64,000 nucleotides of DNA from Bacillus rhizoplanae (GTDB taxonomy: Bacteria; Bacillota; Bacilli; Bacillales; Bacillaceae_G), in NCBI RefSeq assembly GCF_917563915.1, contig NZ_CAKJTI010000006.1:1-64000 (forward strand). The letters are read 5' to 3'. Shown here piece by piece: positions 8,823 to 24,068 of this stretch. Numbering within the stretch: position 1 is the first letter of the stretch; the number at the start of each line of letters is the position of its first letter. Below the pieces are notes generated by a model that was not told where the DNA came from, did no database searches, and saw only the letters and a list, made by a program, of their open reading frames with translations. The position numbers and the translations under genes were made by a program.

Positions 8823-8898
8823 GCGCCCATAGCTCAGTTGGATAGAGCGGTGGTTTCCGGTACCACGTCTGTCGGGGGTTCGAATCCCTCTGGGCGCG
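8823..8898 (+). tRNA. tRNA-Arg (anticodon CCG)
   Basis: The 76-nt cloverleaf has acceptor GCGCCCA/TGGGCGC, D stem GCTC/GAGC, anticodon stem GTGGT/ACCAC with loop TTCCGGT (anticodon CCG, codon CGG), T arm with GGTTCGAAT and discriminator G. CCA is not encoded. Its 3' half is the insertion site of the integrative element: the last 44 bases are part of a direct repeat, so the tRNA stays intact after integration. Confidence 0.95.
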
Positions 8899-8899
8899 T
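8855..8899. repeat. left attachment site (attL core)
   Basis: The 45-bp segment, from TTCCGGTACC in the anticodon loop through the tRNA end plus one base, is repeated exactly at 24024-24068. Upstream the two copies diverge at once (TGGT versus AGTA). Confidence 0.93.
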
Positions 8900-9013
8900 T
8901 CTAGATGATATGACAGCGTTATATCAACGTCTTGATACGAAATTTACCGGAAGAACGTCTCTCCTCGATTGATGAATAGACACGGTGATAAGTAAACGGG
9001 AAGACATTTTCGT

Positions 9014-9034
9014 TAGGTTATCCGTCTATACAAA
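9014..9034 (+). promoter_or_regulatory. candidate left arm-type integrase site
   Basis: TAGGTTATC-CGTCTATACAAA recurs near the right end at 23943-23962 as TAGGTTCA-CGTCTATACAAA, in the same orientation. Short direct repeats just inside both ends suit arm-type sites of a tyrosine integrase. This is inference from position and identity. Confidence 0.45.
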
Positions 9035-9078
9035 TCGCGGAGTAACGAATCACTCGAATAATATATCGTTAAACGAAA

Positions 9079-9106
9079 CCTCTCGTGTAAAAACGGGAGG
9101 TTTTTT
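9079..9106 (+). terminator. terminator hairpin that also holds the integrase SD
   Basis: The 7-bp stem CCTCTCG / CGGGAGG with an 8-nt loop is followed by six T. The 3' arm GGGAGG (9095-9100) is also the only SD for the integrase TTG at 9110, spaced 9 nt. Folding would both stop transcripts coming from tRNA-Arg and hide the integrase ribosome site. Confidence 0.75.
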
Positions 9107-9109
9107 ATT

Positions 9110-10078
9110 TTGCGAAAAAGAGGAATTGTTAAACGCCGAGAAGTCGATTTGCGTAATAAGTTATCTGAAGGTATCACGGTGAATGAAGCGCTTGAAATTG
9201 TTATGCGGATTTATGAGTCGGAAGGGTACCGCGAAAGAACGGTAAGAGACTACCGTAAATTTTGGGCGCAATTTACCGACATTATTAAGCGGGAGTATAT
9301 CGAAAAAGTTACAACAGAGGATATTCGCAAATATGTACATCACTTGTTGCATACGCGAGATTTATCGGCTGTAACGGTTAACATTCGATTGTCAGCGGTA
9401 CGTGCAATATTTAACCGGCTGTACAGCGAGGAGATTATCGAAGTTAATCCAGTCGAAAAGGTTCGCAAGCTGCGGACGGATCAACAACGTATTTTTACGC
9501 TCACAGACGATCAGATTAGACGCTTATTCGCGATGATAGATAAAGATACATTTACGGGATATAGAGATTACTGCGCCTTCCTACTGGCGCTTAAATGCGG
9601 GTTACGCTCCAATGAGCTCCATTCCCTCGAAACTAAAGACGTGGATTTAGATAACGGAGTCATTTTATTACCTGGCGCAAAGAACAAGAACCGCAAGACG
9701 CGCATGGTTCCGATGTCTAAGAAAGTCGCCCAGGAACTTGCTCAACTTATTGCGGAAACTCGGGAATATTTCGGATCCCAGGTGACCCATGTATTTACGA
9801 ATCAATTCGGTGAGCCAATGAAGCACGAACTGCTACGTAAACGGGTCGATTCATACGCAAGGAAGGCGGGTTTAAAAGGCGAGTGTCGAGCTTCCTTACA
9901 TTCGCTTCGGCACACGTTCGCTACAAACTTCTTAAAGAATGGCGGCAACATACGTACACTCATGTCGATTCTAGGACACAGCGACTTATCAACGACGCAG
10001 ATTTACTTGAACTACACCGATGAGCAAGTCGTTGAGCAGTATCGAGAAGTTAGCGAAAAAGACACGTTAGACGTTTAG
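9110..10078 (+). CDS. int: tyrosine recombinase / integrase of the element
   Basis: The 322-residue protein has a SAM-like N-terminal DNA-binding domain (about 23-110) and a C-terminal catalytic domain. Catalytic residues are readable: Arg166 in CGLRSNEL, His264-Ser-Leu-Arg267, His290 in LGHSDLSTT and nucleophile Tyr299. It should catalyse site-specific insertion into and excision from the tRNA-Arg 3' end. It begins with TTG, its SD being embedded in the preceding terminator. The gene reads away from the tRNA, so a transcript from the tRNA promoter that passes the terminator would express it. Confidence 0.95.
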   Translation: MRKRGIVKRREVDLRNKLSEGITVNEALEIVMRIYESEGYRERTVRDYRKFWAQFTDIIKREYIEKVTTEDIRKYVHHLLHTRDLSAVTVNIRLSAVRAIFNRLYSEEIIEVNPVEKVRKLRTDQQRIFTLTDDQIRRLFAMIDKDTFTGYRDYCAFLLALKCGLRSNELHSLETKDVDLDNGVILLPGAKNKNRKTRMVPMSKKVAQELAQLIAETREYFGSQVTHVFTNQFGEPMKHELLRKRVDSYARKAGLKGECRASLHSLRHTFATNFLKNGGNIRTLMSILGHSDLSTTQIYLNYTDEQVVEQYREVSEKDTLDV

Positions 10079-10224
10079 AGGAGAAACAGACATAAAAAAA
10101 GAGCGCCTGCAAAAGCAAGCACCCTAACCCTAAATCAATTATATTCAAAAAAAGCGTGGGAAGCAACGCTTATTTGAGTATGGGCTTGTAAGCAAATGTG
10201 CGCTCCAAAAAGGGAGACGGAGCC

Positions 10225-11001
10225 ATGCAATATCTGCGTGAATATAAAACGTTTGAATCAGTCGAACAGTTAAACGCGGCTGTTCGTGGGCATCTTTACG
10301 CTCATAATTTTGAATTAAATGATACAGATAAGAACATTCTAAAGTTAATCGGTCGCTATACCGTTAAGTACCTCGGTGCAGCGCATTTGAAGGCGGCAAC
10401 TATCGCTGAGGCTATCGATCGGAGCGAGAAGACCGTGCGCCGTTCGCTGAATAAGCTGCAGTCGCTAGGCATCATTCGTAAAGTACGCACGACACGTCAC
10501 ATTATGGGCGGCTACGGTGCGAATATAATCGTGATAAATATGTTTGACCAGTCGCCAGTGTCCAGTCGTGAGGATGCTGATAAACCACGCCAGGCAAGTG
10601 CTGAGCCGGCGAAATCTTCTATCGAAACAATTACCCTTCAAAGCAAAAATAATAAATCACATAAAGAAACGGTAATGCCGGCCGATTGCTTGCGTCGTTC
10701 TATGCCGAGCGCTATTTTTAACGCTATGAGTCCGTACTTTAATGCCGATGGGCTATACAAAGCATACGGTATGCTCTTACGTGCCAAAGCGAGCGTCGAT
10801 CGTAACATTATGGTCGAGGACTACGAGAACGAGTTCGTTGATGCGTTCAAGGCGGTAGTCTACGCGTTGAAGCGAGGTCGAGTGCGGAAGCTGAACGGAT
10901 GCTTATTCGCTGCATTCCGCCAGGTGACGATAGAGATTAAACGTAAGCTGACGATGAAGGATAGCCCGCTGTTTTATGATTGGTTGCACGAGAACTATTA
11001 G
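10225..11001 (+). CDS. HTH-domain protein, possible replication or regulatory protein
   Basis: The roughly 258-residue protein has a winged-helix-like HTH (about residues 50-95: ATIAEAIDRSEKTVRRSLNKL, then GIIRKVRTTR), a polar linker with many Ser and Lys, and a helical C-terminus. This shape is common in plasmid or phage replication initiators and in element-specific regulators. The family is not firmly recognised. The start ATG at 10225 is preferred over GTG at 10198 because AGGGAG lies just upstream. Confidence 0.7.
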   Translation: MQYLREYKTFESVEQLNAAVRGHLYAHNFELNDTDKNILKLIGRYTVKYLGAAHLKAATIAEAIDRSEKTVRRSLNKLQSLGIIRKVRTTRHIMGGYGANIIVINMFDQSPVSSREDADKPRQASAEPAKSSIETITLQSKNNKSHKETVMPADCLRRSMPSAIFNAMSPYFNADGLYKAYGMLLRAKASVDRNIMVEDYENEFVDAFKAVVYALKRGRVRKLNGCLFAAFRQVTIEIKRKLTMKDSPLFYDWLHENY

Positions 11002-11026
11002 AAGGTTATATAAAGGTATTCGTCTA

Positions 11027-11458
11027 TTAGGGATGTTTTATTAATCGTAGCGGGAGTCCCTTTCTCCAATCTTTACCTTGCTCCACCATTCTTTGTGCTT
11101 TTGTACTATATTCGGGCATATATTTCGGCGGGTATTCAAATCCCATGGATATTAAGTTACGTACATTGTATCTAATATTAAAGATTGGTTTTAACGCCTC
11201 TATAAAATCTCTTTCAAGACGCTTTCTAGTATGCACCTGTTCGAGTATATAACGAAAGTAGTTGTAATGATGGCTTATACCTGCGTCATCTATTATAAAA
11301 TGACGTGTACAACAGGACTGAAGGTGACCTTCACCTACATAAACAATTTGATCTTTTGAGTTATAAATAAGATATAGGCCACGCATTCCGTTAAGTAGAA
11401 TTTTTTTGTAATTTCCGTTCTGTATATCTTTAAGCGTAATTTCATTGTATACACGCAC
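11027..11458 (-). CDS. GIY-YIG domain protein
   Basis: The 143-residue protein has a GIY-YIG nuclease-like core: GLYLIYNSKDQIVYVGEG carries the GLY and YVG elements, a His/Arg helix follows (HFIIDDAGISHHYNYFRY), and FIEALKPIFN resembles the Glu/Pro-Asn end of the domain. It may be a homing-type or element-maintenance endonuclease, which is inference. A GTG start at 11458 fits the SD GGAGG at 8 nt better than the TTG at 11473, which overlaps that SD. It points against its neighbours and seems to be a separate unit. Confidence 0.7.
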   Translation of the reverse strand: MRVYNEITLKDIQNGNYKKILLNGMRGLYLIYNSKDQIVYVGEGHLQSCCTRHFIIDDAGISHHYNYFRYILEQVHTRKRLERDFIEALKPIFNIRYNVRNLISMGFEYPPKYMPEYSTKAQRMVEQGKDWRKGLPLRLIKHP

Positions 11459-11562
11459 TTTAGTATCCTCCAACCGGTATGTATATATTTATCTCATATC
11501 TTTGACACTTCATGTGCGTTATAGACGTACTGGTATTTTAATGAATGTCCCTGTTTGTGGTA

Positions 11563-11769
11563 TTATCTTGTATAGATTTTTTGTATATGAAATGATTTGA
11601 TATGACGTGTAAATATGATGGTTCCGTCAATTTTTATGTAGTCAATATTTCTATCGGCGATGTCCCTCGTTAATTTATTCCGTAAAACAGGTAAGCTTTC
11701 TTCGCATATAATTTGTTCTAGTTGTCTTTGTGGTAAATGAAACGTCACTAAAAAGTGCTTTAGTTTCAA
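11563..11769 (-). CDS. small unrecognised protein, 68 aa
   Basis: TTG start with a strong SD (GGAGG, about 8 nt). The product is basic (KLKHFLVTFHLPQRQLEQII). No family is recognised and no signal peptide or membrane segment is seen. It stands alone between the GIY-YIG gene and the small genes beyond. Confidence 0.5.
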   Translation of the reverse strand: MKLKHFLVTFHLPQRQLEQIICEESLPVLRNKLTRDIADRNIDYIKIDGTIIFTRHIKSFHIQKIYTR

Positions 11770-11813
11770 GGGAATTTCCTCCTTTTGTTTGATAGATTTG
11801 CTTTCATGATAAC

Positions 11814-11996
11814 TCAGATAAACATCTTCTGTACAAAGGATGTAATTGAAGTTTGGATGCAGAAATTTCGAATTTTAGTGTGCGAAACTTCAAATTTGCA
11901 TAGTGTAAATTGAAATATTCGTATGAGTTCGATAAGCGCTGTTTCGACGGTCGATATGTTATTCGCTTTCTGATAGCGCTTAGTTAATCGGATCAC
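11814..11996 (-). CDS. doubtful small ORF, 60 aa
   Basis: The GTG start overlaps the stop of the 15-codon frame at 11993-12040 as GTGA, a pattern that allows translational coupling. The product is basic with no recognised family. It may be chance. Confidence 0.25.
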   Translation of the reverse strand: MIRLTKRYQKANNISTVETALIELIRIFQFTLCKFEVSHTKIRNFCIQTSITSFVQKMFI

Positions 11997-12040
11997 TCAT
12001 CGGACAACACTACGTCTACTCTTTCGTGTTCCATTTCCAT
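11993..12040 (-). CDS. very short ORF (15 aa) with strong SD
   Basis: The acidic peptide MEMEHERVDVVLSDE follows GGGAGGTGA at ideal spacing, and that SD overlaps the stop of the 59-aa frame upstream. It may be a leader peptide for the next frame or a real microprotein. Confidence 0.35.
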   Translation of the reverse strand: MEMEHERVDVVLSDE

Positions 12041-12045
12041 ATCGT

Positions 12046-12225: not shown

Positions 12226-12246
12226 CGCGGTGTATTAGCGCACAAC

Positions 12247-12275
12247 AAAAAAGACGCCCGGTCAACGAGCGCCTT
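12247..12275 (-). terminator. resolvase terminator
   Basis: On the minus strand GGCGCTCG-TTGA-CCGGGCGTC followed by TTTTTT overlaps the end of the resolvase gene. Confidence 0.75.
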
Positions 12276-12840
12276 CTTCCGCTTTCTGTTTTCGAATATA
12301 ATCGTATAGTGCTGTACGCCCTACGCCTGGCGAACGTTCTAGTATTTCCGCAACCGTGTACTTCTCCGTTTTGTATAAATCGTATGCTGCCTCGAGTTTC
12401 TTCTCGTCTGTTTTCGGACGGCCGCCATTCTTACCGCGAGCTCGTGCTGATTGCAAGCCGCTCTTTGTTCTCTCGCTAATCCATTCACGTTCAAGTTGCG
12501 CCATAACCGCTAGCATACCGAACATAGCACGACCGGTAGCGGTGTTCATATCGATGTTCTCTTTTAGTGATACGAGCACAACGCCCATTTCGTTTAAATC
12601 CTCCGCTATGTTTACGAGGTCTTTCATACTACGTCCTAAACGCGTGAGCTCCGTAATAACTAACGTATCCCCTTCACGCAACTGATCGAGTAGAGCCGCT
12701 AATCCTTCGCGTTCTGCCGTCTTACCCGTTTTCACGTCCGTAAATATCTTATCGACCCCATATCGTTCTAGCTCATCGAGCTGGCGTGTGAGCTCCTGTT
12801 TATCGGTAGACACCCTCGCGTAACCAAACGTTTTGTTCAT
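12262..12840 (-). CDS. serine resolvase/invertase
   Basis: The 192-residue protein has a resolvase N-terminal domain: FGYARVSTDKQELTRQL carries the nucleophile Ser10, and RLGRSMKDL and ERTKSGLQSARARG are typical. A C-terminal HTH follows (KYTVAEILERSPGVGRTALYDYI, with GRP before it). It is of the Tn3-resolvase or Hin/Gin size class. ATG 12840 has the SD AGGGGAGCGG. The upstream DNA carries a set of GTACGAAAA half-sites, so it probably acts there for dimer resolution or inversion and may repress its own promoter. A frame to 12912 extends upstream but lacks an SD. Confidence 0.93.
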   Translation of the reverse strand: MNKTFGYARVSTDKQELTRQLDELERYGVDKIFTDVKTGKTAEREGLAALLDQLREGDTLVITELTRLGRSMKDLVNIAEDLNEMGVVLVSLKENIDMNTATGRAMFGMLAVMAQLEREWISERTKSGLQSARARGKNGGRPKTDEKKLEAAYDLYKTEKYTVAEILERSPGVGRTALYDYIRKQKAEEGAR

Positions 12841-12886
12841 AAATTCCGCTCCCCTTTCACTGGATAAAATATCCTCTATTTGCATT

Positions 12887-12949
12887 GTACGAAAAAGGAT
12901 GATAATAGTCAATATTCGTACATAGATTTTCGTACGGTTTTTCGTACAT
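12887..12949. promoter_or_regulatory. candidate res site / resolvase operator
   Basis: Four copies of the half-site occur: GTACGAAAAA (12887), and TTCGTAC copies at 12915, 12929 and 12941 in inverted orientation. They lie just upstream of the resolvase start, where resolvases of this family bind. Confidence 0.55.
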
Positions 12950-13423: not shown

Positions 13424-13648
13424 ATGTATGAAAAGTTAACCGCTAGAACACGATTACAAGCAATTTTGGAGGAACGAGGCATGAGTGAGAAGGAACTGGC
13501 GATTAAATCCGGAGTGCCCCAGGAGGCTATCGCACGCTTTGACAAGAGTGCTCGTTTGGGAGTATCGCACATCGTACGGGTCGCACGCGCATTAGAGATA
13601 TCAATCGAGGAGTTATTGGATATTAAAACGGGGGAAGCGACTGTTTAA
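13424..13648 (+). CDS. XRE-family HTH regulator, 74 aa
   Basis: The protein is almost wholly a Cro/C1-type HTH: LQAILEERGMSEKELAIKSG, then VPQEAIARFDKSARLGVSHIVRVARALEISIEELLDI. The SD GGGGGG is followed by ATG at 6 nt. It is likely an element-specific repressor. A terminator follows at 13,689. Confidence 0.88.
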   Translation: MYEKLTARTRLQAILEERGMSEKELAIKSGVPQEAIARFDKSARLGVSHIVRVARALEISIEELLDIKTGEATV

Positions 13649-13921: not shown

Positions 13922-13962
13922 TTGCCATAACATTCATCGAACGCTGAAAGGAGGTGAACTGT

Positions 13963-14202
13963 ATGTATTTAACGTCTAATCAAATTCGCATCGTACGAAA
14001 ACTACACGGGCTTTCACAACGGGAGCTGGCTCGCCTAATCAACGTAGATTCCGGTCTGATCTCGAAAGTAGAAGCCGATAAAGCGTCTGTTTCGACGAAT
14101 CTAAACAAGCGTTTGATTGATGCGCTCGAAATTACGGAGGAGAAACTAGCGCTAGCAATCGAAGTGAGCGAACGATTCAAGGTTCGTACTCCGATCGCTT
14201 AG
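13963..14202 (+). CDS. XRE-family HTH regulator, 79 aa
   Basis: This is a Cro/C1 HTH protein (IRIVRKLHGLSQRELARLIN, then SGLISKVEADKASVSTNLNKRLIDAL). The ATG at 13963 is chosen for its near-perfect SD AAGGAGGTGA. A GTG three codons earlier lies inside that SD. It probably regulates the downstream ATPase operon, which is inference. The following 290 bp (14,203-14,493) hold a small hairpin TTAGCAC/GTGCTAA and no gene. Confidence 0.88.
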   Translation: MYLTSNQIRIVRKLHGLSQRELARLINVDSGLISKVEADKASVSTNLNKRLIDALEITEEKLALAIEVSERFKVRTPIA

Positions 14203-14493: not shown

Positions 14494-15693
14494 TTGGCAA
14501 AAATCACGGTTGTTGATTCGATTATGGGTTCTGGAAAAACGTCCTGGGCGCTACAGCATATTAACGAGAGTAGAACGGATAAGAAGTACATCTACATTAC
14601 GCCGTATCTGGACGAAGTGCAGCGCGTTATTAATTCTTCGGTATCCCGTAAGTTTATCGAGCCTAATAACAACAATAGCGAGGGGCGCAAGTTGCGTAGC
14701 TTAAAGGAACTAATCATCGCCGGTCACGATATCTGCGCAACGCACAGCCTGTTCCAGAGTGCTGACGATGAATTGCTCGAGCTGCTAACGGGTGCTGGCT
14801 ATACGTTAATTCTCGACGAGGTCATGAACGTGATCGATCGTGCACCCATCGATAAGGGAGACATCGAGCTACTAACGAACCAGGGCTACGTAGAGGTGCG
14901 AGATAATCGCGTTTACTGGACGAAGGAAGATTACAACGGGCGTTTCGAGGACATCAAGCTTTACGCTCGGTCCGGCAATCTGTTCCTGCATCGTAAGACG
15001 TTTATTCTGTGGGCGTTTCCACCGAAGATATTTAGTGCGTTTGATGACGTGTATGTACTTACGTACCTCTTCGACGCGCAAATCCAGCGATATTACTACG
15101 ATTTACACGAAATGGGTTATACGTATAAATCCATAACGAAATCTGATGGACGCTACGAGCTTGCCGAATACAGCCGTGAGAACGAGCGTCGTGAAGAAGT
15201 CATGAAGCTTATCGACCTGTATGCCGGGCAACTAAATGATTTCGCTGATCGCCGTAATGCGCTCAGTACGTCTTGGTTAGATAAAGCGCCCGAAGCCACG
15301 ATTAATTTAATCAAGCGAAACGTATATAACTATTTCCGTAATTACTGCAAATCAAAAACGAAAGACGTTCTATGGACGACCATTAAGAAGAAGGAAGCTA
15401 AATTACGAGGCAAGGGGTATACGAAAGGGTTTATTCCGGTTAATACCCGAGCTACAAACGATTATGCGGACAGATGGGCGCTAGCCTACGTTTATAACCG
15501 CTATATGAACCCGTTTGAGCGTGCGTTCTTCGAGGATAATGGTGTATCAGTAAATGAGGAGTTACTTGCTGTATCGGATTTATTGCAATGGGTGTGGCGT
15601 TCACGGATCCGTAATGGACAATCTATTAAGTTGTATCTGCCATCCAGTCGTATGCGTGGTTTGTTGAAGGCGTGGGAGAAATACGAGATTTAA
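14494..15693 (+). CDS. P-loop ATPase, helicase-like
   Basis: The 399-residue protein has Walker A IMGSGKTSW (residues 10-18) and Walker B LILDEVMN (about 108-115). An arginine-rich segment near the C-terminus, LLQWVWRSRIRNGQ, looks like SF1/SF2 motif VI. This order (motif I, DE box, late QxxxRxR) suggests an SF2-type helicase acting in replication of the element. The exact family is not recognised. TTG start with SD GGGGAG. It heads an operon with the sigma-like gene. Confidence 0.75.
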   Translation: MAKITVVDSIMGSGKTSWALQHINESRTDKKYIYITPYLDEVQRVINSSVSRKFIEPNNNNSEGRKLRSLKELIIAGHDICATHSLFQSADDELLELLTGAGYTLILDEVMNVIDRAPIDKGDIELLTNQGYVEVRDNRVYWTKEDYNGRFEDIKLYARSGNLFLHRKTFILWAFPPKIFSAFDDVYVLTYLFDAQIQRYYYDLHEMGYTYKSITKSDGRYELAEYSRENERREEVMKLIDLYAGQLNDFADRRNALSTSWLDKAPEATINLIKRNVYNYFRNYCKSKTKDVLWTTIKKKEAKLRGKGYTKGFIPVNTRATNDYADRWALAYVYNRYMNPFERAFFEDNGVSVNEELLAVSDLLQWVWRSRIRNGQSIKLYLPSSRMRGLLKAWEKYEI

Positions 15694-15745: not shown

Positions 15746-16486
15746 ATGAAGAAAACTGAAGGGTTATATGAGGTGTGGGAAGTTGAATCATTCCTTGCGG
15801 GAATGCACCGGGTAAGGGAACTCCGCTATTGTGACGACGGCTCCAAGGTGTATGCGAATACCTGGCTCGATATTATTAATGTGCTCCAAACGCCTGATGT
15901 TCTAACACCGCGGCAGATTCAAGCGATTGCACTCGTGTATGTATATGAGCTTAAGAGAGCGGAGGCTGCGCAGTTGCTCGGCGTGTCTAAACCGGCTATC
16001 ACGCGTGTACTCGGTTCCGCAGCCCAACGTATAGTTGACGTCTTAAATGGCGAAAAACTCGCACGTACGCGAACGCAGGCGGCTTACGAGATGGTGACGG
16101 ACGATCCAGCGCTTAAAGCGTGGCTCTGCGAAGCAATAGATGCGGGTATTGTACCGTTATGGCCGGTTAAACCTTTCGATGCTCCAACGGACAAGAAATC
16201 GTATAAAGAGCGCCAGAAGGCGGAAGAGGGGGAGGGATACGAATGGTTAAATCCAAGAAGGCTGCGACGCATTGAGGAAGAGCATGAATTCGTAAAGCCA
16301 GAGATTTTCCCCATACGCAGGCAAGTCGCACAAAAACGTGTGTTAACTGAATCAAATATAGATGATCAGGACTTCGCAAACATGCAGCAGGGCGATAAAT
16401 TGGAGGGTAAGCACGAGCCGAGCATGAAGTACAATTTGAAAACTCAAAGACTAGAATTCCGAAAGAAAAAATTGTATGCAAATTAG
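15746..16486 (+). CDS. sigma-70 region 4-like HTH protein
   Basis: In the 246-residue product, residues 53-98 read LTPRQIQAIALVYVYE...AAQLLGVSKPAITRVLGSAAQRI, a region-4-type HTH. No region 2 is present, so it is not a complete sigma factor. The C-terminal half is charged with Arg/Lys clusters (LNPRRLRRIEEEHEF). It may be a late-gene-type activator of the element. SD GGGGGAG precedes the ATG. A terminator follows at 16,570. Confidence 0.72.
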   Translation: MKKTEGLYEVWEVESFLAGMHRVRELRYCDDGSKVYANTWLDIINVLQTPDVLTPRQIQAIALVYVYELKRAEAAQLLGVSKPAITRVLGSAAQRIVDVLNGEKLARTRTQAAYEMVTDDPALKAWLCEAIDAGIVPLWPVKPFDAPTDKKSYKERQKAEEGEGYEWLNPRRLRRIEEEHEFVKPEIFPIRRQVAQKRVLTESNIDDQDFANMQQGDKLEGKHEPSMKYNLKTQRLEFRKKKLYAN

Positions 16487-16639: not shown

Positions 16640-16891
16640 ATGAATTTGACAGTTAAGGATATTAAGGCCATTCGTCGCGCTTATTTCTTGAGTCAATGCG
16701 ATCTTGCTGAGCTTCTGGATTACACTCGCGCATACATTTCAAACGTAGAAAATGATATTAAGCCGATATCGCAAGAGCTTCAAGACCGGATTACAAAGCG
16801 ATTCGATTTATACCCGGAAAAACTGATACGGATACATGCCTACATGAGGGAATTTCACATGCCAGATGATGAGGAGAGAATAAAAACATGA
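16640..16891 (+). CDS. XRE-family HTH regulator, 83 aa
   Basis: Cro/C1 HTH at residues 5-55 (IKAIRRAYFLSQCDLAELLDYTRAYISNVEN, here read in two parts around LLDY). It has the SD AGGAGG and is the first gene of a tight run of small genes, with an ATGA overlap into the next. Confidence 0.85.
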   Translation: MNLTVKDIKAIRRAYFLSQCDLAELLDYTRAYISNVENDIKPISQELQDRITKRFDLYPEKLIRIHAYMREFHMPDDEERIKT

Positions 16892-17175: not shown

Positions 17176-17411
17176 TGCCACGAAAATTCGAACGTAATCC
17201 ATGTAGTGGATTAAAGACAAAATATCGAGACCGGAATCCGCATTGGCTTAACGAGCTAATTAAAACCGTTAAGGAGGAGTCGCCTTCCGAATGGAGTCGT
17301 ATACAAATGCCTTGGCAAACGGAATGGCAGCCACCGAGAACGAAACGAAAGGGGAAACGAGATGAACAGACCGCTCGCCACAATGAACGTCCAGAGCGTC
17401 GAAGATACTGA
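17175..17411 (+). CDS. unrecognised basic protein, 78 aa
   Basis: Strongly basic, Arg/Pro/Trp-rich product (HWLNELIKTVKEE, WQPPRTKRKGKRDEQ). Start and stop overlap both neighbours; the last 50 bp overlap the next gene in another frame. It could bind nucleic acid. No family is recognised. Confidence 0.55.
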   Translation: MPRKFERNPCSGLKTKYRDRNPHWLNELIKTVKEESPSEWSRIQMPWQTEWQPPRTKRKGKRDEQTARHNERPERRRY

Positions 17412-17793
17412 GATTCTCGCAATCGTACTGTATGACGGGAACGGTCAGCGGATAGAGGAGCATATTTCGCTATTTGAGGACGCACAGAGTGCTGTAGAGG
17501 CTTTGAATCGCATGCTGGCATTTAACGGTATCTTCGAATCTATAGAAGTGTGGTGCGGCAGAAAAGATATTTATATGACGCTGCTGGCGACTGAAGGTGT
17601 ACAGGCTTCATTTCGTCATTCGAGTGACCTGACCGACGGGCTCTATTTGGTTCAGTCCAATCGCCAGATACTCATAGAACACTATGGATTGAAGCCCCTT
17701 TCGAAATGGAAAAGGGTTATTTTAGCATGCTTGAAAAAGCTAGAAATGAGATTAAAAGGAGAGATGAACAATGACAGAAGTTATGAAATGTGA
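17362..17793 (+). CDS. unrecognised element protein, 143 aa
   Basis: The product is mixed alpha/beta (TEILAIVLYDGNGQRIEEH) with a basic C-terminal helix (LSKWKRVILACLKKLEMRLK). It has an SD (AGGGGAAACGAG) and overlaps the preceding gene by 50 bp and the next by 23 bp. No family is recognised. Confidence 0.6.
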   Translation: MNRPLATMNVQSVEDTEILAIVLYDGNGQRIEEHISLFEDAQSAVEALNRMLAFNGIFESIEVWCGRKDIYMTLLATEGVQASFRHSSDLTDGLYLVQSNRQILIEHYGLKPLSKWKRVILACLKKLEMRLKGEMNNDRSYEM

Positions 17794-18361: not shown

Positions 18362-18362
18362 C

Positions 18363-18566
18363 ATGAGCAATTTACAGGTAAAACGACGCGGATTAGAAAC
18401 GTTGGTAAAAGAAGGCGGTAAGGTAACGGATGAGCACATCGAGCAGGCGAAGCTAGTCGCGAAAGGAATCGGTGGAACGAATGCAGTCGCACTCTTTGCA
18501 ACGCTAAAATCGATACAGATCCGTCAGCAAGCGAATCCTACGGATTATGATGGTGAAAAGGGATAG
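18363..18566 (+). CDS. unrecognised small protein, 67 aa
   Basis: Helical, Lys-rich protein (LETLVKEGGKVTDEHIEQAK). ATG lies 1 bp after the previous stop, with SD GGAGGAAG. It is the last gene before the base composition turns AT-rich. Confidence 0.6.
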   Translation: MSNLQVKRRGLETLVKEGGKVTDEHIEQAKLVAKGIGGTNAVALFATLKSIQIRQQANPTDYDGEKG

Positions 18567-18716: not shown

Positions 18717-19751
18717 ATGGAAAGTATCGAACAGAATTTAATACATGGTTTAATGAGAGAATTTAGTGTGAATTTTGTTAGGAAAGTTAATGATTTAAAG
18801 AAGGTATTACAACCATTTAATGGGGATGTTGCTAAAGCTTTACCTCCCGCATTTCAATCAAGTGGGGCAATAATCGAAGTAGCATTTTCGCATGACAAGA
18901 GAGACGTTTTAATAATGTTTAAGAAGAGTGATGATATTCAAATAAATTCAAAGATTATAACAGGAAGTGTTTCTCAACTTATCGGTAACATTATTGGTGT
19001 TAGTGGTGAGGGAGAAGTATATATGCAAAATTGTATGGTTAACGATAGAAAAATTGAACAAGCTTTTTTGTTTTCCTATTCTGTATTCCGACATAAGCTT
19101 TTGAATGTTCAACAATTTGCTCGAGATTTTGTGAGGGTTCATTGGGATTATTATAAGACACAGGGAAAGAACCAGTTTAAACCTCACCTAGAAGCATTGA
19201 AGTTTCAGATGGAATGTTACTTTTTTGATGAGACAGTTCCGGAATTAACTATTGATAAGTTTCTAGAAGAGAATCCTATTATATTGGAGTGTGGATTAAA
19301 CTTATACAAGCCTCGTTCACAAGTTATTATGAAAGATATTTTAAAGAAATATAATCAAGATTTAAAGCCAGATCTTATAGCGTTCAATGAAAGAGAGAAA
19401 ATTTGGACCATAGTGGACTATAAACGTGCCAAAGAAAATATTATTAAAAATGTAGGCAAGGTACGCTCGTCATTTAAATCAGAGGTTCACGACCTGGAAG
19501 CGCAACTCAGGGATTACAGAGAATATTTTTATGAGAGAGAGCAACGGGAGTACATCTGTAAAAAGTATAAAATGGATATTCAACAGCCAAATACCATTGG
19601 TGTTATAGGTAATATAAAAGAAGATGAACAAGATGCATTCAATCGTTTAATCGCGGACAAACCAAGATGGTTTAATATTGTTCCTTATAATTATTTATAT
19701 GATAGCTTTTGCAGGTATTTAGATTTAACAATTAAACTCATTAAAGATTAA
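18717..19751 (+). CDS. Shedu-like (DUF4263-type) putative anti-phage nuclease
   Basis: The 344-residue protein's C-terminal part (about 180-335) follows the pattern of Shedu SduA/DUF4263 nucleases: FLEENPIIL (182-190), KPDLIAF with Asp219, IVDYK with Asp234 and Lys236 as a PD-(D/E)xK-type site, then LEAQLRDYREYF and a late GVIGN strand. Family members give single-protein phage defence in Bacillus. The N-terminal ~180 residues are not recognised and may be the sensor part. The gene is clearly more AT-rich than the rest of the element, a sign of separate acquisition as cargo. SD GGAGTGATG. The family call rests on motif pattern only. Confidence 0.68.
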   Translation: MESIEQNLIHGLMREFSVNFVRKVNDLKKVLQPFNGDVAKALPPAFQSSGAIIEVAFSHDKRDVLIMFKKSDDIQINSKIITGSVSQLIGNIIGVSGEGEVYMQNCMVNDRKIEQAFLFSYSVFRHKLLNVQQFARDFVRVHWDYYKTQGKNQFKPHLEALKFQMECYFFDETVPELTIDKFLEENPIILECGLNLYKPRSQVIMKDILKKYNQDLKPDLIAFNEREKIWTIVDYKRAKENIIKNVGKVRSSFKSEVHDLEAQLRDYREYFYEREQREYICKKYKMDIQQPNTIGVIGNIKEDEQDAFNRLIADKPRWFNIVPYNYLYDSFCRYLDLTIKLIKD

Positions 19752-19978: not shown

Positions 19979-20006
19979 AGAGGGGCTTATACAGCTCCTC
20001 TTTTTT
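19979..20006 (+). terminator. terminator of the cargo unit
   Basis: 9-bp stem AGAGGGGCT / AGCTCCTCT, loop TATAC, T run. Confidence 0.87.
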
Positions 20007-20027
20007 ACCTGAAAAGGAGGGAGAACG

Positions 20028-20546
20028 ATGGGACATTATGCGATTGATTGGGAGCGTATTGATCGTGAGCTAGCTGAACTACCTACACCGGAGCCCAGGC
20101 GCATTAAAGATGCGGGGCTTTCTCTTCTTATATGCGAGCAAGTACAGCCACTAGTGGAGGTGTTTATAACCTTTGCGGAAGTTGTCTCGAAAACACAAAC
20201 TGTGCCGCCAATCGATATGAACGTGTTCAGGCGCTACGAGACGTATATTGAGGCAGGACGTGAGATAGACCCTATCTTTCATGCGTTGTATATGCTAGGA
20301 GTTGACCTTGTGTATAGGGAAATCGGAGGCTCACAGCAAACACTACAGGCCGAAGAAGTAACTGATACTTACGTACGAAAGTTAACGCGTGGATTGCTGA
20401 CATCGCTAAAGTTTTGCGCGGAGTTACCTGGTATAGCGCTAAATACAAACGATGCGATTGCGTATGAACAAGCGAAGGCAACATACGAACGATTGAAAGA
20501 TAACGAGAATTTACTACGAGAGGAGATTGAAAATGCATTACGATAA
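20028..20546 (+). CDS. unrecognised element protein, 172 aa
   Basis: Mostly helical acidic protein with the strong SD AAGGAGGGAG. No motif is recognised. It overlaps the start of the phBC6A51-type gene by 14 bp, so the two are probably translated together. Confidence 0.65.
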   Translation: MGHYAIDWERIDRELAELPTPEPRRIKDAGLSLLICEQVQPLVEVFITFAEVVSKTQTVPPIDMNVFRRYETYIEAGREIDPIFHALYMLGVDLVYREIGGSQQTLQAEEVTDTYVRKLTRGLLTSLKFCAELPGIALNTNDAIAYEQAKATYERLKDNENLLREEIENALR

Positions 20547-20991
20547 AAGCGTAACTCTTCAAGATTTAGCGTTGAATTTAACGGAGGACGAGCGATTGGC
20601 AGCCGATTTACTTCTCGCAAGAGAATACACGCCGAAAAAGGAGCGACCGACATACGATCAAATTGCTGAGCAATTAGGTATATCGGTGCGCCAGCTATAC
20701 ACAGTTCGCAATAAACCGGCCTTTATCACGTATTTTAGAGCTCTTACAGAAACGAAATTAGCCACGTATCATGCCAAAGCAGACAGTATGCTTATCCAAT
20801 TAATCGATGGAGGCAACAACGGAATCGGGTCTATAAAGGCTCTGGAACTCTATTATAAGCTGACAGGTCGCCTCAATTCAGATACAACTGTCACATTTGC
20901 GGACGAAAGAAGCGCTACAAAACGTATGACAGACCAAGATGTTAACGAGGAGATTGCTAAATTATCAGCGAGCTTAAAACGATTGCAATAA
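20533..20991 (+). CDS. phBC6A51-family HTH protein (small-terminase-like)
   Basis: The roughly 152-residue protein has an N-terminal HTH (PTYDQIAEQLGISVRQLYTVRN, residues about 40-62 across the Thr) and a helical part ending in a KALELYYKLTGRL segment. It matches my memory of phBC6A51-type phage HTH proteins, which resemble small terminase subunits. No large terminase is seen in the element. If the likeness is real, it may redirect a helper phage packaging machine as satellites do; otherwise it is a DNA-binding regulator. ATG 20533 fits GAGGAG at 7 nt. Confidence 0.65.
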   Translation: MHYDKSVTLQDLALNLTEDERLAADLLLAREYTPKKERPTYDQIAEQLGISVRQLYTVRNKPAFITYFRALTETKLATYHAKADSMLIQLIDGGNNGIGSIKALELYYKLTGRLNSDTTVTFADERSATKRMTDQDVNEEIAKLSASLKRLQ

Positions 20992-21004
20992 CGGATGATA
21001 CACG

Positions 21005-21025
21005 GGCGCCATCAGGCGCCTTTTT
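21005..21025. terminator. bidirectional terminator between convergent genes
   Basis: GGCGCC-ATCA-GGCGCC with T run on the plus strand, between the rightward HTH gene and the leftward membrane-protein gene. Confidence 0.8.
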
Positions 21026-21497
21026 ATATGCTCTTTGCTATCTCGACTAACAACTTCATAAGTAATGGTATCATCTGTACGATAATGTAGCCGATACCGG
21101 CTTGCTGGATGAGCGAGAATCCCTTTTCCTTGTTTCCGATGATGCAGAACAGACCACCACCCATTGCTACAATAGATGCGATAGGGTACGCGATAGCCTT
21201 TATGAGGTATGCGACAGGTTCAAAGGCATGAGTGACACGGCTATATAATTGACCATCAACGTAGTTTTGTAAGCCACTATCTGGCGTTACGTCATTGAAT
21301 ACAGGAGCATCCACTCCGCCTGAAGCAAACACAGGAATATCGACGATTTGACTGAATAAAATGCTACTACCGAGTATTATTGTTACGCGCACTGCCACCG
21401 GCGCGTATTTTTTTATGTTCTTTTTAACTTTCTTCAACCTCTTTTTGGCTCCGTAATCTCCGCTCATGAAATCCTTGATGCTTATTGTCTCTGCCAT
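21024..21497 (-). CDS. small membrane protein, VirB2/TrbC-like layout
   Basis: The 157-residue product has a basic N-terminus (KKRLKKVKKNIKKYA), one hydrophobic stretch ending in a possible signal-peptidase site (VFA before SGG), a polar loop, then two hydrophobic helices (IASIVAMGGGLFCIIG and GIGYIIVQMIPLLMKLLV). This order resembles pilin-like VirB2/TrbC subunits or other transfer-channel membrane proteins. The sequence family is not recognised. It is the last gene of the FtsK operon. ATG 21497 has SD AGGGAG. Confidence 0.6.
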   Translation of the reverse strand: MAETISIKDFMSGDYGAKKRLKKVKKNIKKYAPVAVRVTIILGSSILFSQIVDIPVFASGGVDAPVFNDVTPDSGLQNYVDGQLYSRVTHAFEPVAYLIKAIAYPIASIVAMGGGLFCIIGNKEKGFSLIQQAGIGYIIVQMIPLLMKLLVEIAKSI

Positions 21498-21516
21498 GCG
21501 GATCAGCTCCCTTTGG

Positions 21517-22113
21517 TTAGTGAAAGTCACCAACTGTAAAAATAACTGTGTCTAACTCTATGCAAAGTTGCGCAATCTCCCTTCTACGGTATTCGGTTGT
21601 CGTCATCCAAATGAATTTCGGTGGCTTATCAAACACACCGAGTTCTATCATCTTCCTATATTTTTTGATTTTCATCCGATTTGCAGCCATTTTCTGTAAA
21701 AAGTCTACTTCTACGATATGGTATTGTCCGTTTTTCTTGAAAATGGCGTCGCATACTACTGATATCTCACCTTTTACCCCTAATCGTATTTCTGTTTTCC
21801 AGTCTCCAGGACAACCGAATGCGATGTAAACATCGTTCCTCATAATAAAGTGCCGGCATTGATTCGTTTTCGCTCGTCTTTTCTTACAGTCGACACGGTC
21901 TCGCCCATGTTTATTCAAGTAATACACGTTTTCTCCATCTCGAAAACTGGATACGTACTCTTCTAATTCTTTCATGATACGTTGTGCATTTCTGACGCTG
22001 CCTAGCTCATGTAACACCTGTATTTGCGATCTAGTCAGATAACCGAGTTTCCGTAAGCTCAAGAGTATGTTTTCGTACCTTACTTCCTTTCGAGCTAACT
22101 TTTGCACGTTCAT
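21517..22113 (-). CDS. replication-relaxation family protein
   Basis: The 198-residue protein has an N-terminal winged helix (ILLSLRKLGYLTRSQIQVLHELGS) followed by an alpha/beta part with GEISVVCDAIFKKNGQYHIVEVDF. This layout is that of the replication-relaxation (Replic_Relax) family found on plasmids and integrative elements beside FtsK-type ATPases. It may handle origin melting or DNA processing. The acidic/His-rich core (CDAIF, IVEVD) could be a nuclease-like site, which is speculation. Overlaps the FtsK gene end by 83 bp in another frame. Confidence 0.75.
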   Translation of the reverse strand: MNVQKLARKEVRYENILLSLRKLGYLTRSQIQVLHELGSVRNAQRIMKELEEYVSSFRDGENVYYLNKHGRDRVDCKKRRAKTNQCRHFIMRNDVYIAFGCPGDWKTEIRLGVKGEISVVCDAIFKKNGQYHIVEVDFLQKMAANRMKIKKYRKMIELGVFDKPPKFIWMTTTEYRRREIAQLCIELDTVIFTVGDFH

Positions 22114-23362
22114 TCTCCCTTCGAGTACGAATGTTTATTAGCGGCCCAATAATATCGTCAATCTGCTTATTCTCGATTTTTGGCGTCTGTACAATCGTCC
22201 GCTTATTCGTTTGATATATGGCGCGGCCCTTAATGTTCGGCAGGATTTCCGCACCTCCTTCGTCAAGCACCGCACGACTTGCCGCTTCCGTTTGTAGTTT
22301 GAAGCATACGCGGGCTCCGATGTTTTGCCGTAATTGCGAGGACAGCGTTTCGTTTGTCGGGTACTGTGTCGCATAGATTAGCCGAAGCCCAGCCGCCCGA
22401 CCACGCCGTCCGATATCCGCGAGAATGTCCTGGCATACGGTGTCCTTTGCGATGTCAGCCGCTTCGTCGACTACGATGAATAGGCGATCAGGCATCCCCG
22501 CTTCCTTCACGTCCTCATAACCGTTACATAGTAAATATTCGTGCTTTTCATCGAGGGTATCCGAAACTGTTTTGAGGGCTGCGCGTGCTTCGGTTGGATT
22601 CTTAGCAATCGTTTCGACTTGCGGAAGGTCACGAAATCTATTAAACGATAAGCCACCTTTTAGGTCGATAAGCACCAGTTTCGTATACTCTGGATTGTTA
22701 TGAACGAGAGCTGTAATAATGAGCTTCAAACCGTTAGATTTACCGCTGTCAGTCGTTCCGGCATAGATAAGGTGAGCAATCTTGTCAAAGTCGTGCTTTA
22801 CGAGACCGTCGCGTGTGAATCCTATCGGTACTTGCCAGCCGTGGCATTGCTCGAGCATATCGACCTCAAACGGAACGAAATCCGGCATTCCTTTCTCGTA
22901 TACTCGCACCTGTAGTACGCCATCATATGTGAGCTCAACTTCTTTTCGGACAACCGTTTTCTTCATTATAATGTTGCGTATCTGGTATAGAATGTCGCGC
23001 TGGAATCGTAGTTCACGTAAATCCGATAACTTAAAGTCGTACAACCATCGTTTATGATTTAAGCCATCTTGCAATTGCGGAAGCTTCGCCTGGAAATCCG
23101 CAAAGCTAAGTCCGAGTGGAATACGATAAGCATACTCGGTTCCCCATTCGTGACGGGTTCTTCGTAGTAAATGAATCGTACGAATCTCGCCACTTTCCTT
23201 TACTTTGAGCCCGCAATTAGCGCAAATTCGCGAGATTTTCGCAGCGTCATCAGTCGCCCCGGATGCGCATAATTTCGTGTAGAGAACGACCCCGCCGACA
23301 ACTACCGAGGAAGCAATTTCCGCTATCAAAAGCCACACCACCTTTCTCCGTATATTCTGCAA
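22031..23362 (-). CDS. FtsK/SpoIIIE-type DNA translocase
   Basis: The protein has up to 443 residues. One N-terminal membrane helix (9-28) is followed by a CANC pair (47-50), then the FtsK/HerA motor: Walker A AGTTDSGKS (201-209) and Walker B RLFIVVDEAAD (293-303), plus RGRAAGLRLIYATQYP. It should pump DNA at the membrane, as do coupling proteins of conjugative elements or TraB of actinomycete elements. An alternative start TTG at 23329 has a better SD (AAAGGTGG) and would shorten it by 11 residues. It is the first gene of the leftward operon. Confidence 0.88.
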   Translation of the reverse strand: MQNIRRKVVWLLIAEIASSVVVGGVVLYTKLCASGATDDAAKISRICANCGLKVKESGEIRTIHLLRRTRHEWGTEYAYRIPLGLSFADFQAKLPQLQDGLNHKRWLYDFKLSDLRELRFQRDILYQIRNIIMKKTVVRKEVELTYDGVLQVRVYEKGMPDFVPFEVDMLEQCHGWQVPIGFTRDGLVKHDFDKIAHLIYAGTTDSGKSNGLKLIITALVHNNPEYTKLVLIDLKGGLSFNRFRDLPQVETIAKNPTEARAALKTVSDTLDEKHEYLLCNGYEDVKEAGMPDRLFIVVDEAADIAKDTVCQDILADIGRRGRAAGLRLIYATQYPTNETLSSQLRQNIGARVCFKLQTEAASRAVLDEGGAEILPNIKGRAIYQTNKRTIVQTPKIENKQIDDIIGPLINIRTRRENERAKVSSKGSKVRKHTLELTETRLSD

Positions 23363-23423
23363 GAATAGTCCCTAGCAAAACGAATGGTGCGAACAAGTGT
23401 AGACAACGCAGCGTTTCTAGCTT

Positions 23424-23550
23424 TTGTATGTCGTTCTGTCATTCGGTATGCGAAATGAGAAACGAAGCGTCAAAACGAATTGCAAAGCGAGCGATGGACA
23501 CACTTCATAACGAATAGTGAAGCGTATGGTAAAGCGTATTCGCCAGCGTT
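23424..23550. promoter_or_regulatory. repeated AAGCGTAT-like words between divergent genes
   Basis: The gap between the FtsK gene and the HTH gene carries GAAGCGTC (23466), CAAAGCGAGCG (23481), GAAGCGTATGG (23519), AAAGCGTATTC (23531) and CAGCGTTT (23543). They could be regulator or initiator sites for two divergent promoters. No function is proven. Confidence 0.4.
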
Positions 23551-23624
23551 TGTCCGCTATGTCACTTTTTTGCACATGTATAATAAAATGACACAATGGA
23601 CAGGATGGTACTGAGGTGATGATA

Positions 23625-23858
23625 ATGTTTAACTGGCTAAATCTCGGGAAGAGCAACAGGAGTAAATTCGGGAAATGGCTCGATCACCAAGAAATTACAC
23701 AACTAGAATTGGAAAAGGTAACGAAGCTAAGTAGAGGGACGATCTCGAAATTGTGCAATGACAATACATACCGTCCGAAATTTTCAACGATGCAGCAAGT
23801 TACGAGAGGTTTAAAAAAGTTAGGTAAGAGTGTAGAGGTTGAGGAATTTTGGATATGA
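23625..23858 (+). CDS. HTH regulator at the right end of the element, 77 aa
   Basis: XRE-type HTH (FGKWLDHQEITQLELEKVTK, then SRGTISKLCND) with a C-terminal extension. ATG 23625 follows GAGGTG at 6 nt. It is divergent from the FtsK operon and 165 bp from attR, so it may control transfer or excision. A 22-codon frame (23855-23923) overlaps its stop but lacks support. Confidence 0.8.
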   Translation: MFNWLNLGKSNRSKFGKWLDHQEITQLELEKVTKLSRGTISKLCNDNTYRPKFSTMQQVTRGLKKLGKSVEVEEFWI

Positions 23859-23942
23859 ATTCGTCGCAAACGGCACAATTTTCGCTTGTACATAACGTGC
23901 CGACCGTTTATAATTCGAAATAAGAACGGTAAGACACCGTAA

Positions 23943-23962
23943 TAGGTTCACGTCTATACAAA
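23943..23962 (+). promoter_or_regulatory. candidate right arm-type integrase site
   Basis: TAGGTTCA-CGTCTATACAAA repeats the word at 9014-9034, 62 bp inside attR. Confidence 0.45.
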
Positions 23963-24023
23963 CGTATTTCTAACGATAAACACGAGAGGGTCTCGTGATT
24001 TAACCATATATCATTCGATAGTA

Positions 24024-24068
24024 TTCCGGTACCACGTCTGTCGGGGGTTCGAATCCCTCTGGGCGCGT
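24024..24068. repeat. right attachment site (attR core)
   Basis: Exact 45-bp copy of 8855-8899, the 3' end of tRNA-Arg without its 5' half. Directly behind it lies the terminator that belonged to the uninterrupted tRNA gene. Confidence 0.93.

What the first reader, a model, noticed from the sequence alone, without database searches (positions are those of the whole stretch)
8855..24068. Integrative element with FtsK motor but no visible relaxase
The 45-bp att repeat, integrase and tRNA-Arg target are directly visible. The only transfer-like genes are an FtsK/SpoIIIE ATPase, a replication-relaxation protein and a small VirB2-like membrane protein. Known conjugative elements of Firmicutes need a relaxase, while actinomycete elements move double-stranded DNA with one FtsK-like protein and no relaxase. 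This element may use a comparable minimal route, or depend on a helper.
Basis: partly seen in the sequence, partly recalled or inferred. Interest (0 to 1): 0.75.

Follow-up and report, generated by a model that had tools for sequence, protein, structure and literature searches.

The report
Phage satellite carrying a DNA-pump cassette
The island is most likely a phage satellite, a small integrated element that travels in a helper phage's particles by means of its own DNA-packaging tag protein, and the conjugation-looking motor genes are an optional cassette shared with many Bacillus phages whose job is still unknown.

Summary
In detail: a 15.2-kb island lies between exact 45-bp repeats in tRNA-Arg(CCG), with an integrase, an FtsK-like motor, a Replic_Relax protein and a (weakly) VirB2-like membrane protein. 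The interpretation changes. Next to the "transfer" genes is a phage small terminase (TerS), related to the B. cereus phage phBC6A51 protein 2AO9 (E=1.8e-33). Twelve related loci, in Bacillales-type genomes and viral contigs, have this TerS and no large terminase or portal that my limited references could find. Nine of ten checked have exact att-like repeats; eight of the nine span 15.1-17.3 kb, one 23.1 kb. I read this as a family of phage satellites. The XRE/FtsK/Replic_Relax/VirB2-like cassette is a phage accessory module, found in 5 of the 13 satellite loci and in many tailed phages. "No visible relaxase" is doubtful: Replic_Relax (PF13814) is the domain of relaxases that CONJscan assigns to MobC, and D122, E135, D137, N145, K148, Y152 are invariant in the 37 sequences aligned. 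Helper-phage transfer is the likely route; auxiliary conjugative mobilisation is not excluded. Ten of the 12 relatives also encode a tape-measure protein; the window does not.

The parts
8822..8899 (+). tRNA-Arg(CCG), integration target
   Evidence: ARAGORN
8855..8899 (+). attL, 45-bp repeat
   Evidence: exact repeat
9110..10078 (+). tyrosine integrase
   Evidence: PF00589 2.2e-39; related (1.1e-46) to the integrase of satellite L007, which lies beside tRNA-Arg(CCT)
10198..11001 (+). replication-initiator-like HTH protein
   Evidence: phrog_1835 'HTH DNA binding protein' 3.6e-46, weaker matches to replication initiation families; 38% identical over 240 aa to L002
11027..11473 (-). probable GIY-YIG-like endonuclease (weak)
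   Evidence: phrog_16880 endonuclease 5.7e-4; GIY-YIG pattern read by eye
12262..12912 (-). serine resolvase/invertase
   Evidence: PF00239 1.5e-44
13424..13648 (+). XRE regulator
   Evidence: HTH_26 5.5e-8
13954..14202 (+). XRE regulator
   Evidence: HTH_3 1.1e-8
14494..15693 (+). P-loop protein, SPbeta YonV-like
   Evidence: phrog_2467 1.4e-75; SPBc2 yonV 42%
15746..16486 (+). phage sigma-like regulator
   Evidence: phrog_3512 sigma factor 6.9e-10
16640..16891 (+). XRE regulator
   Evidence: HTH_3 2.3e-6
17362..17793 (+). satellite core gene g3, function unknown
   Evidence: homologues in satellites L006, L008, L038
17771..18361 (+). satellite core gene g4, function unknown
   Evidence: homologues in L006, L008, L038
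18363..18566 (+). satellite core gene g5; tentative scaffold-C-terminus-like protein
   Evidence: homologues in L008 and L006; likeness to scaffold C-termini by eye only
18717..19751 (+). Shedu (SduA/DUF4263)-like defence gene, upstream of terS where relatives such as L006, L034, L038, L039 have a tape-measure gene
   Evidence: PADLOC SduA 1.2e-12
20028..20546 (+). g7, gene directly upstream of terS
   Evidence: same place and homologous in L006, L007, L008, L033, L038, L042; weak 30% match in L002
20527..20991 (+). small terminase TerS
   Evidence: PF13022 1.4e-15; phrog_7344 1.5e-9; PDB 2AO9 1.8e-33 by profile A5
21024..21533 (-). cassette: VirB2/TrbC-like small membrane protein
   Evidence: phrog_5422 7.5e-42; Pfam TrbC only 0.027; hydrophobic stretches near 46-70, 107-133, 145-166
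21517..22113 (-). cassette: Replic_Relax, MOBC-relaxase-like
   Evidence: PF13814 1.1e-11; D122, E135, D137, N145, K148, Y152 in 37 of 37 aligned sequences
22031..23362 (-). cassette: FtsK/TcpA-like motor
   Evidence: PF01580 2e-19; Walker A GTTDSGKS at 202, FIVVDE at 295; profile A2 finds FtsK and 'DNA translocase coupling protein' structures 6o1w-6o1z
23616..23858 (+). cassette: divergent XRE regulator
   Evidence: HTH_3 2.9e-5; 5.7e-19 to the XRE of phage PK5.2
24024..24068 (+). attR, 45-bp repeat
   Evidence: exact repeat

Best explanation
The island is a phage satellite of the PICI type. It sits in tRNA-Arg, can presumably be cut out and replicated with its own integrase and initiator, and uses its own TerS to steer a helper phage's large terminase onto its DNA, so that it leaves the cell in helper particles. 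The XRE/FtsK/Replic_Relax/VirB2-like genes are an optional cassette shared with tailed phages and are not the transfer engine. My favoured, unproven guess is that the cassette makes a membrane-anchored complex that nicks and pumps DNA, and protects the carrier against competing phage DNA. Shown: borders, gene homologies, a family of relatives with no TerL or portal detected by the references used, the cassette's wide occurrence in phages. Inferred: excision, helper use, packaging, cassette function.
For: TerS: PF13022 1.4e-15, TerS PHROG 1.5e-9; profile A5 finds the phBC6A51 protein 2AO9 at 1.8e-33, a structure discussed among small terminases in PMC11331095 (passages). The same TerS family lies beside TerL, portal and SU10-type capsid genes in prophage loci L036, L040 and L041, with a scaffold gene in L040 and its relative in L041. 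Twelve relatives with this TerS: 0 of 12 and not the window match the two TerL and three portal references used, with 16 kb more upstream added for 9 of 12. Exact att-like repeats of 30-156 bp in 9 of 10 genome-located relatives: 15.1, 16.3, 16.3, 16.3, 16.5, 16.8, 17.1, 17.3 and 23.1 kb; window 15.2 kb. Shared gene order g3-g4...g7-terS with L006, L008, L038. Cassette: of 59 IMG/VR loci with Replic_Relax, 58 have FtsK directly upstream (fused to it in one) and 50 a VirB2-like gene downstream. It is inside 5 of 13 satellite loci: window, L002, G079, G323, G103. The five satellite FtsK genes fall in four places among the others, 4 changes needed. Two B. subtilis phages 96% identical differ mainly by a 2,525-bp four-gene insert with FtsK, replication-relaxation, HTH and hypothetical genes (PMC9476937, passages).
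Against: No helper was found: the TerL profile from the three prophage loci gave 0 of 10 in the satellite genomes (no positive control in that search, and other TerL families would be missed). The TerS gave no match in 50,697 phage records at E<=0.01. No pac/cos site, excision or packaging data. TerL/portal absence rests on phmmer with five references plus clustering. Window, L008 and L033 lack the tape-measure gene that the other ten have, so partial decay of the window element cannot be ruled out. One bounded relative is 23.1 kb and one (G272) has no repeat found. One plasmid with FtsK and Replic_Relax (pBEH3) shows no phage genes in the 13.6 kb seen, so the cassette is not strictly a phage thing. 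The defence role of the cassette is a guess with no test.
Confidence: 0.82

Rival explanations
1. Integrative and mobilizable or minimal conjugative element as the main mode of movement: Replic_Relax acts as a MOBC-type relaxase, the FtsK/TcpA-like protein as coupling protein, and the VirB2-like protein as pore or as adaptor to a resident type IV system; TerS is incidental.
For: PF13814 is the domain of the MobC-type relaxases of streptococcal IMEs, and FtsK-like TcpA coupling proteins lie upstream of non-canonical relaxases there (PMC5357655, passages). MOBC relaxases are related to PD-(D/E)XK nucleases (PMC12857230, passages), and D122, E135, D137, K148, Y152 are invariant in the 37 sequences aligned. 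Coupling-protein structures are among the best hits of the motor. Eleven of 72,556 plasmid records carry the Replic_Relax homologue.
Against: No VirB4, VirB6 or lytic transglycosylase above cut-off in the 20 proteins scanned with Pfam and PHROGs (10 each also in PADLOC and NCBIfam; a few small frames were not scanned). The two MobC IMEs in that paper use VirD4, not TcpA. The cassette occurs in Andromeda-type phages, which I recall as virulent and which have no evident use for conjugation. It is missing from 7 or 8 of 12 relatives, so it is not what makes the family mobile. The best-matching plasmid, pGspE55-2, has a phage-like gene set in the 22 of 43 kb seen.
Confidence: 0.08
2. Defective prophage remnant: an integrated phage that lost its head, tail and lysis genes.
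For: Many genes have phage homologues; the prophage in G327 has this TerS family and, 24 kb on, the Replic_Relax gene.
Against: Nine relatives in different genomes have paired repeats at their borders and eight of the nine a narrow size of 15.1-17.3 kb, with partly shared gene order, which random decay would not give; the window genes described here are open frames.
Confidence: 0.08
3. About the cassette only: plasmid-like maintenance, helping to segregate or replicate extrachromosomal phage or satellite circles.
For: Proposed for the same genes in phages Novomoskovsk and Bolokhovo (PMC9658697, passages); relatives of the window's initiator-like gene lie within 5 kb of the cassette in 11 of 59 IMG/VR loci.
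Against: The cassette also lies in elements with integrases; two nearly identical temperate phages do with and without it.
Confidence: 0.15

Closest known systems
PICI / SaPI phage satellites
   Same: about 15 kb, integrase, XRE regulators, initiator-like gene, own TerS without TerL, defence-like cargo (PICI features recalled)
   Different: other gene families; most relatives carry a tape-measure gene; five loci carry the FtsK cassette; helper unknown
cf-PICI capsid-forming satellites
   Same: two relatives (L005, L009) carry an SU10-type capsid gene (on the same gene in L001, 88) after a gene that looks scaffold-like by eye; some cf-PICIs carry putative tmp genes (PMC12987554, legend passage)
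   Different: no TerL or portal found; the window has no capsid gene found
Vibrio PLE satellites with chimeric tails
   Same: satellite-borne tape-measure protein, as in 10 of 12 relatives here (PMC12987554, passages)
   Different: other hosts and genes; the window itself has no tape-measure gene found
XRE/FtsK/Replic_Relax/TrbC-like module of Bacillus and Geobacillus siphophages (PK5.2, Andromeda, 268TH007)
   Same: same gene families and order; divergent XRE in PK5.2; overlapping FtsK and Replic_Relax frames in most loci
   Different: here in a satellite, at its attR end
MOBC relaxases (TraX of pAD1, MobC of CloDF13) and TcpA coupling proteins
   Same: PF13814 domain, D...ExD...K...Y pattern; FtsK-type motor gene next to it
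   Different: compact 198-aa protein, no known oriT, no type IV secretion genes found, no tested activity
AICEs of Streptomyces (TraB)
   Same: single FtsK-like motor; NCBIfam plasmid_TraB 2e-11, far under its cut-off
   Different: better matched by FtsK, coupling-protein and type VII secretion ATPase structures; a MOBC-like partner is present

Membership tests
PICI-like phage satellite | integrase and att repeats at a fixed site | tested here: met
   no island beside tRNA-Arg(CCG) in 3 of 3 relatives fetched
PICI-like phage satellite | own TerS without TerL, portal or lysis genes | tested here: met
   no match with the references and libraries used
PICI-like phage satellite | small, conserved size | tested here: met
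   15.2 kb; 8 of 9 bounded relatives 15.1-17.3 kb, one 23.1 kb; one of 10 without repeat
PICI-like phage satellite | stl/alpA-type control and pri-rep replication module | tested here: inconclusive
   four XRE genes and an initiator-like gene; no named stl, alpA or pri match seen
PICI-like phage satellite | induction and packaging by a helper phage | not testable with these tools
   no helper TerL found in 10 satellite genomes, no positive control
cf-PICI | own capsid, portal and TerL genes | tested here: not met
   none found in the window; capsid gene only in L005 and L009
IME with MOBC relaxase | relaxase of a known family | tested here: met
   PF13814 45.6 bits against cut-off 25.3; invariant catalytic-like residues; activity untested
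IME with MOBC relaxase | oriT | tested here: inconclusive
   no convincing long inverted repeat beside the cassette; a 25-bp conserved site lies upstream of ftsK in the window and a subset of relatives
ICE | VirB4 and mating-pore genes | tested here: not met
   none above cut-off among the proteins scanned; only a weak VirB2/TrbC match
AICE | TraB-type dsDNA transfer without relaxase | tested here: not met
   TraB model 43 bits against cut-off 800; Replic_Relax partner present; transfer itself not testable

The most novel reading that the evidence does not exclude
A dual-mobility satellite: the element carries TerS to hijack phage particles and also a phage-borne mobilisation module (MOBC-type relaxase, TcpA/FtsK-type motor, VirB2-like pilin), so that it or its circles could also be handed over through a conjugation pore. 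That would make this widespread phage cassette a hidden conjugation kit circulating among phages, satellites and plasmids.
Probability: 0.18. Interest if true: 0.85.

Novelty: new variant of a known kind. Interest (0 to 1): 0.55.

Why it matters
It moves a supposed relaxase-free conjugative element into phage-satellite biology and points to a satellite family in Bacillales-type bacteria, for which the capped listings of my paper searches showed no description (open-licence papers only, no preprints). It also frames a real open question: why do so many Bacillus phages, and several of their satellites, carry a motor, a relaxase-like protein and a pilin-like protein as one unit? A natural phage pair with and without the unit (268TH007/268TH002) makes that testable. 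The tape-measure genes in 10 of 12 relatives suggest that satellite-made tails may not be limited to Vibrio PLEs.

Tried and rejected
Near-DNA searches of the island in phages and plasmids: no match. TerS in phage records: none at 0.01, four noise-level matches up to E=10. IMG/VR scan with the YonV-like protein: none. TerS in plasmids: one weak Paenibacillus match, 7e-6. The gene in the g7 place of L001 is not alike to the window g7. PDB sequence searches with Replic_Relax and VirB2-like profiles gave nothing credible. Scaffold-like function of g4/g5: PHROG and Pfam scans of relatives gave nothing credible, so it stays a by-eye lead. An oriT beside the cassette: not found. Helper TerL in the satellite genomes: 0 of 10. 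Considered and rejected: AICE, ICE and cf-PICI membership (see tests).

Rows left out of counts: of 18 genomes with a TerS match 8 were classed as satellites, 3 as prophages (G327, G143, G270), 1 has a TerS match with three stops (G077) and 6 weaker ones (G102, G393, G367, G065, G346, G298) were fetched and clustered but not classed. L001 shows the same genes as L005 in the part compared and was counted once. L010-L032 repeat places fetched at greater length elsewhere. Alignment A6 took the window, L002 and 35 of the 59 loci; A7 likewise a part. In the FtsK tree (64 rows) L098 (same contig as L002) and L077 (FtsK-Replic_Relax fusion) were left out; tips L062, L076, L087, L089 are on short contigs and could themselves be satellites, which would lower the number of separate gains; 59 of 500 label shuffles needed as few changes. 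L009 was seen for 12.4 of 16.5 kb, so its cassette status is open. The three rpoN-region relatives were the best three of 176 matching genomes.


Full report
WHAT IS THERE. The island runs from 8855 to 24068, between exact 45-bp copies of the 3' end of tRNA-Arg(CCG). Most of it is richer in G+C (mostly 43-48% per kb) than its surroundings (mostly 31-43% per kb), with A+T-rich stretches at 11-12 kb and 18-20 kb. In the three best-matching relatives whose right-flank region I fetched, tRNA-Arg(CCG) stands 0.3-0.6 kb from the rpoN-like match (named by eye) with no island (3 of 3).

WHAT WAS MISSED. Two genes change the picture. 20527-20991 is a small terminase; a profile of it and six relatives finds the nine-chain entry 2AO9 at 1.8e-33, the phBC6A51 protein that PMC11331095 discusses among small terminases (passages). 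18717-19751 is Shedu/SduA-like. Other genes are phage- and satellite-like: an initiator-like HTH protein (phrog_1835), a YonV-like P-loop protein, a sigma-like regulator, four XRE genes counting the one at 23616, and a resolvase. Of the 20 proteins scanned, 17362, 18363, 16888 and 20028 gave no family of note.

THE FAMILY. TerS searches gave 12 related loci that I class as satellites: L002, L005, L006, L007, L008, L009, L033, L034, L037, L038, L039, L042. L002 and L009 are IMG/VR contigs; L005-L008 are Lysinibacillus, Calidifontibacillus, Bacillus sp. and Paenibacillus; the rest are unnamed. In the order-wide sample, 18 of 397 genomes have a TerS match at 1e-8 or better: 8 are these satellites, 3 are prophage loci with TerL, portal and SU10-type capsid (L036, L040, L041), 1 has a TerS match with stops, 6 were not classed. 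None of the 12 and not the window matched the two TerL and three portal references (16 kb more upstream included for nine). Only L005 and L009 match the capsid references. Ten of 12 carry a tape-measure gene (nine, L007), in L002 with several genes between it and terS; L008, L033 and the window do not. Repeats bound 9 of the 10 genome-located relatives: G323 16.8, G103 16.3, G079 16.5, G003 23.1, G189 17.3, G360 16.3, G002 15.1, G004 17.1, G001 16.3 kb; none was found for G272. Several lie in or beside tRNA or tmRNA genes. The window shares g3 and g4 with L006, L008, L038, g5 with L006 and L008, and g7 with six relatives.

THE CASSETTE. In Geobacillus phage PK5.2 the order endolysin, hypothetical gene, XRE(-), FtsK, Replic_Relax, small protein, then further on a recombinase, matches the window order read on the minus strand; Andromeda phage has FtsK and two following genes of the same families. 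Of 59 IMG/VR loci with Replic_Relax, 58 have FtsK directly upstream, fused in L077 (the other, L112, begins at the gene), and 50 have a VirB2-like gene downstream. FtsK matches 175 of 50,697 phage records, 51 over at least 80% of its length; Replic_Relax matches 57 and 11 of 72,556 plasmid records. One of these, pGspE55-2, has a phage-like gene set in the 22 kb seen; another, pBEH3, shows none in the 13.6 kb seen. In the order-wide sample 50 of 397 genomes have Replic_Relax at 1e-20 or better. It is inside 5 of 13 satellite loci: window, L002, G079, G323 and G103. None was found in G001-G004 (by the Pfam model, which does find the G079 one) or in G272 and G189; G360 has two copies, both outside its satellite; L009 was only partly seen. 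A tree of 64 FtsK proteins needs 4 changes to explain the 5 satellite ones, window and G323 pairing; 59 of 500 label shuffles need as few, so the label is hardly clustered and the cassette was probably gained more than once. G103 is on a long branch, and some unlabelled tips may be satellites too. Two B. subtilis phages of 96% identity differ mainly by a 2,525-bp four-gene insert with FtsK, replication-relaxation, HTH and hypothetical genes (PMC9476937, passages). The cassette is thus a dispensable module.

IS THERE A RELAXASE? PF13814 is above its cut-off. In PMC5357655 the family stands in the relaxase table as Rel_PF13814/MobC (passages). MOBC relaxases are related to PD-(D/E)XK nucleases (PMC12857230, passages). 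In the 37 sequences aligned (window, L002 and 35 of the 59 IMG/VR loci) D122, E135, D137, N145, K148 and Y152 never vary and E14 is E in 34. From recall, TraX of pAD1 depends on a like set of residues; I did not see that paper. So 'no visible relaxase' holds for the classic families only, and activity is unproven. The motor has intact Walker motifs and one N-terminal hydrophobic stretch, and its profile finds FtsK structures, entries named 'DNA translocase coupling protein' (6o1w-6o1z; I take these to be TcpA of pCW3, recalled) and type VII secretion ATPases.

HOW IT MOST LIKELY WORKS. A helper phage enters or is induced; the island is excised, replicates, and its TerS directs the helper's TerL to it. 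Every step after the gene homologies is inferred. The Shedu-like gene fits defence cargo. For the cassette I rank defence or exclusion of competing DNA first (about 0.45), mobilisation second (about 0.2), plasmid-like maintenance third (about 0.15); none is tested. The presence in Andromeda-type phages (virulent, from recall) speaks against a purely conjugative role.

AGAINST MY READING. No helper TerL in 10 satellite genomes (no positive control). No match of TerS in named phages at 0.01. The absence of TerL and portal rests on a limited reference set. Host of the window unknown.

WHAT IS KNOWN. Phage satellites with TerS are well known (recalled; PMC6092414 seen in a listing). PLE satellites build chimeric tails with their own tape-measure protein, and some cf-PICIs carry putative tmp genes (PMC12987554, passages). 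The cassette genes have been noted in phages and guessed to serve plasmid replication or segregation (PMC9658697, passages) or prophage induction (PMC9476937, passages). I saw no paper on this satellite family or on the cassette in satellites in the listings (capped listings, open-licence papers only). Verdict: a new variant of a known kind, phage satellites, with an unusual cassette.

Noticed in passing
L002, L005, L006, L007, L009, L034, L037, L038, L039, L042: Ten of 12 related satellites carry a tail tape-measure gene of 536-911 aa upstream of terS, a possible second case of satellite-made tails.
   Followed up: partly
L005:4788-6337 and L009:4784-6348: Two satellites carry an SU10-type major capsid gene after a gene that looks scaffold-like by eye, without any portal or TerL found.
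   Followed up: partly
window 18363-18566; L006:6546-6998; L008:5480-6082; L038:6487-6783: Small protein g5 and its relatives (L038 by eye only) have a helix motif that by eye resembles the C-terminus of the phage scaffold proteins in L040/L041; could be a capsid-size redirector.
   Followed up: no
G327: L036 and L049: One prophage carries both the satellite-type TerS with TerL and, 24 kb on, the FtsK/Replic_Relax genes.
   Followed up: partly
L077:3735-5576: Natural fusion of FtsK and Replic_Relax in one 613-aa open frame.
   Followed up: no
window 23547-23571 and upstream of ftsK in L003, L034, L054, L058, L060-L064: A conserved 25-bp site about 160-265 bp upstream of ftsK in the window and a subset of relatives; promoter, operator or nicking site unknown; no chance control was made.
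   Followed up: partly
L124 (G079): A second, longer PF13814 protein (487 aa) close to a frame that looks VirD4-like by eye, probably a conventional MOBC pair in the same genome.
   Followed up: no
window 41123-42634: ABC transporter genes with higher G+C (about 0.46-0.51 per kb) downstream of the tmRNA gene, possibly acquired; no tmRNA repeat of 16 bp or more reported to 52 kb.
   Followed up: no
window 43396-44648 and 45218-46146: Two diverged duplications (87% over 137 bp and 75% over 300 bp).
   Followed up: no
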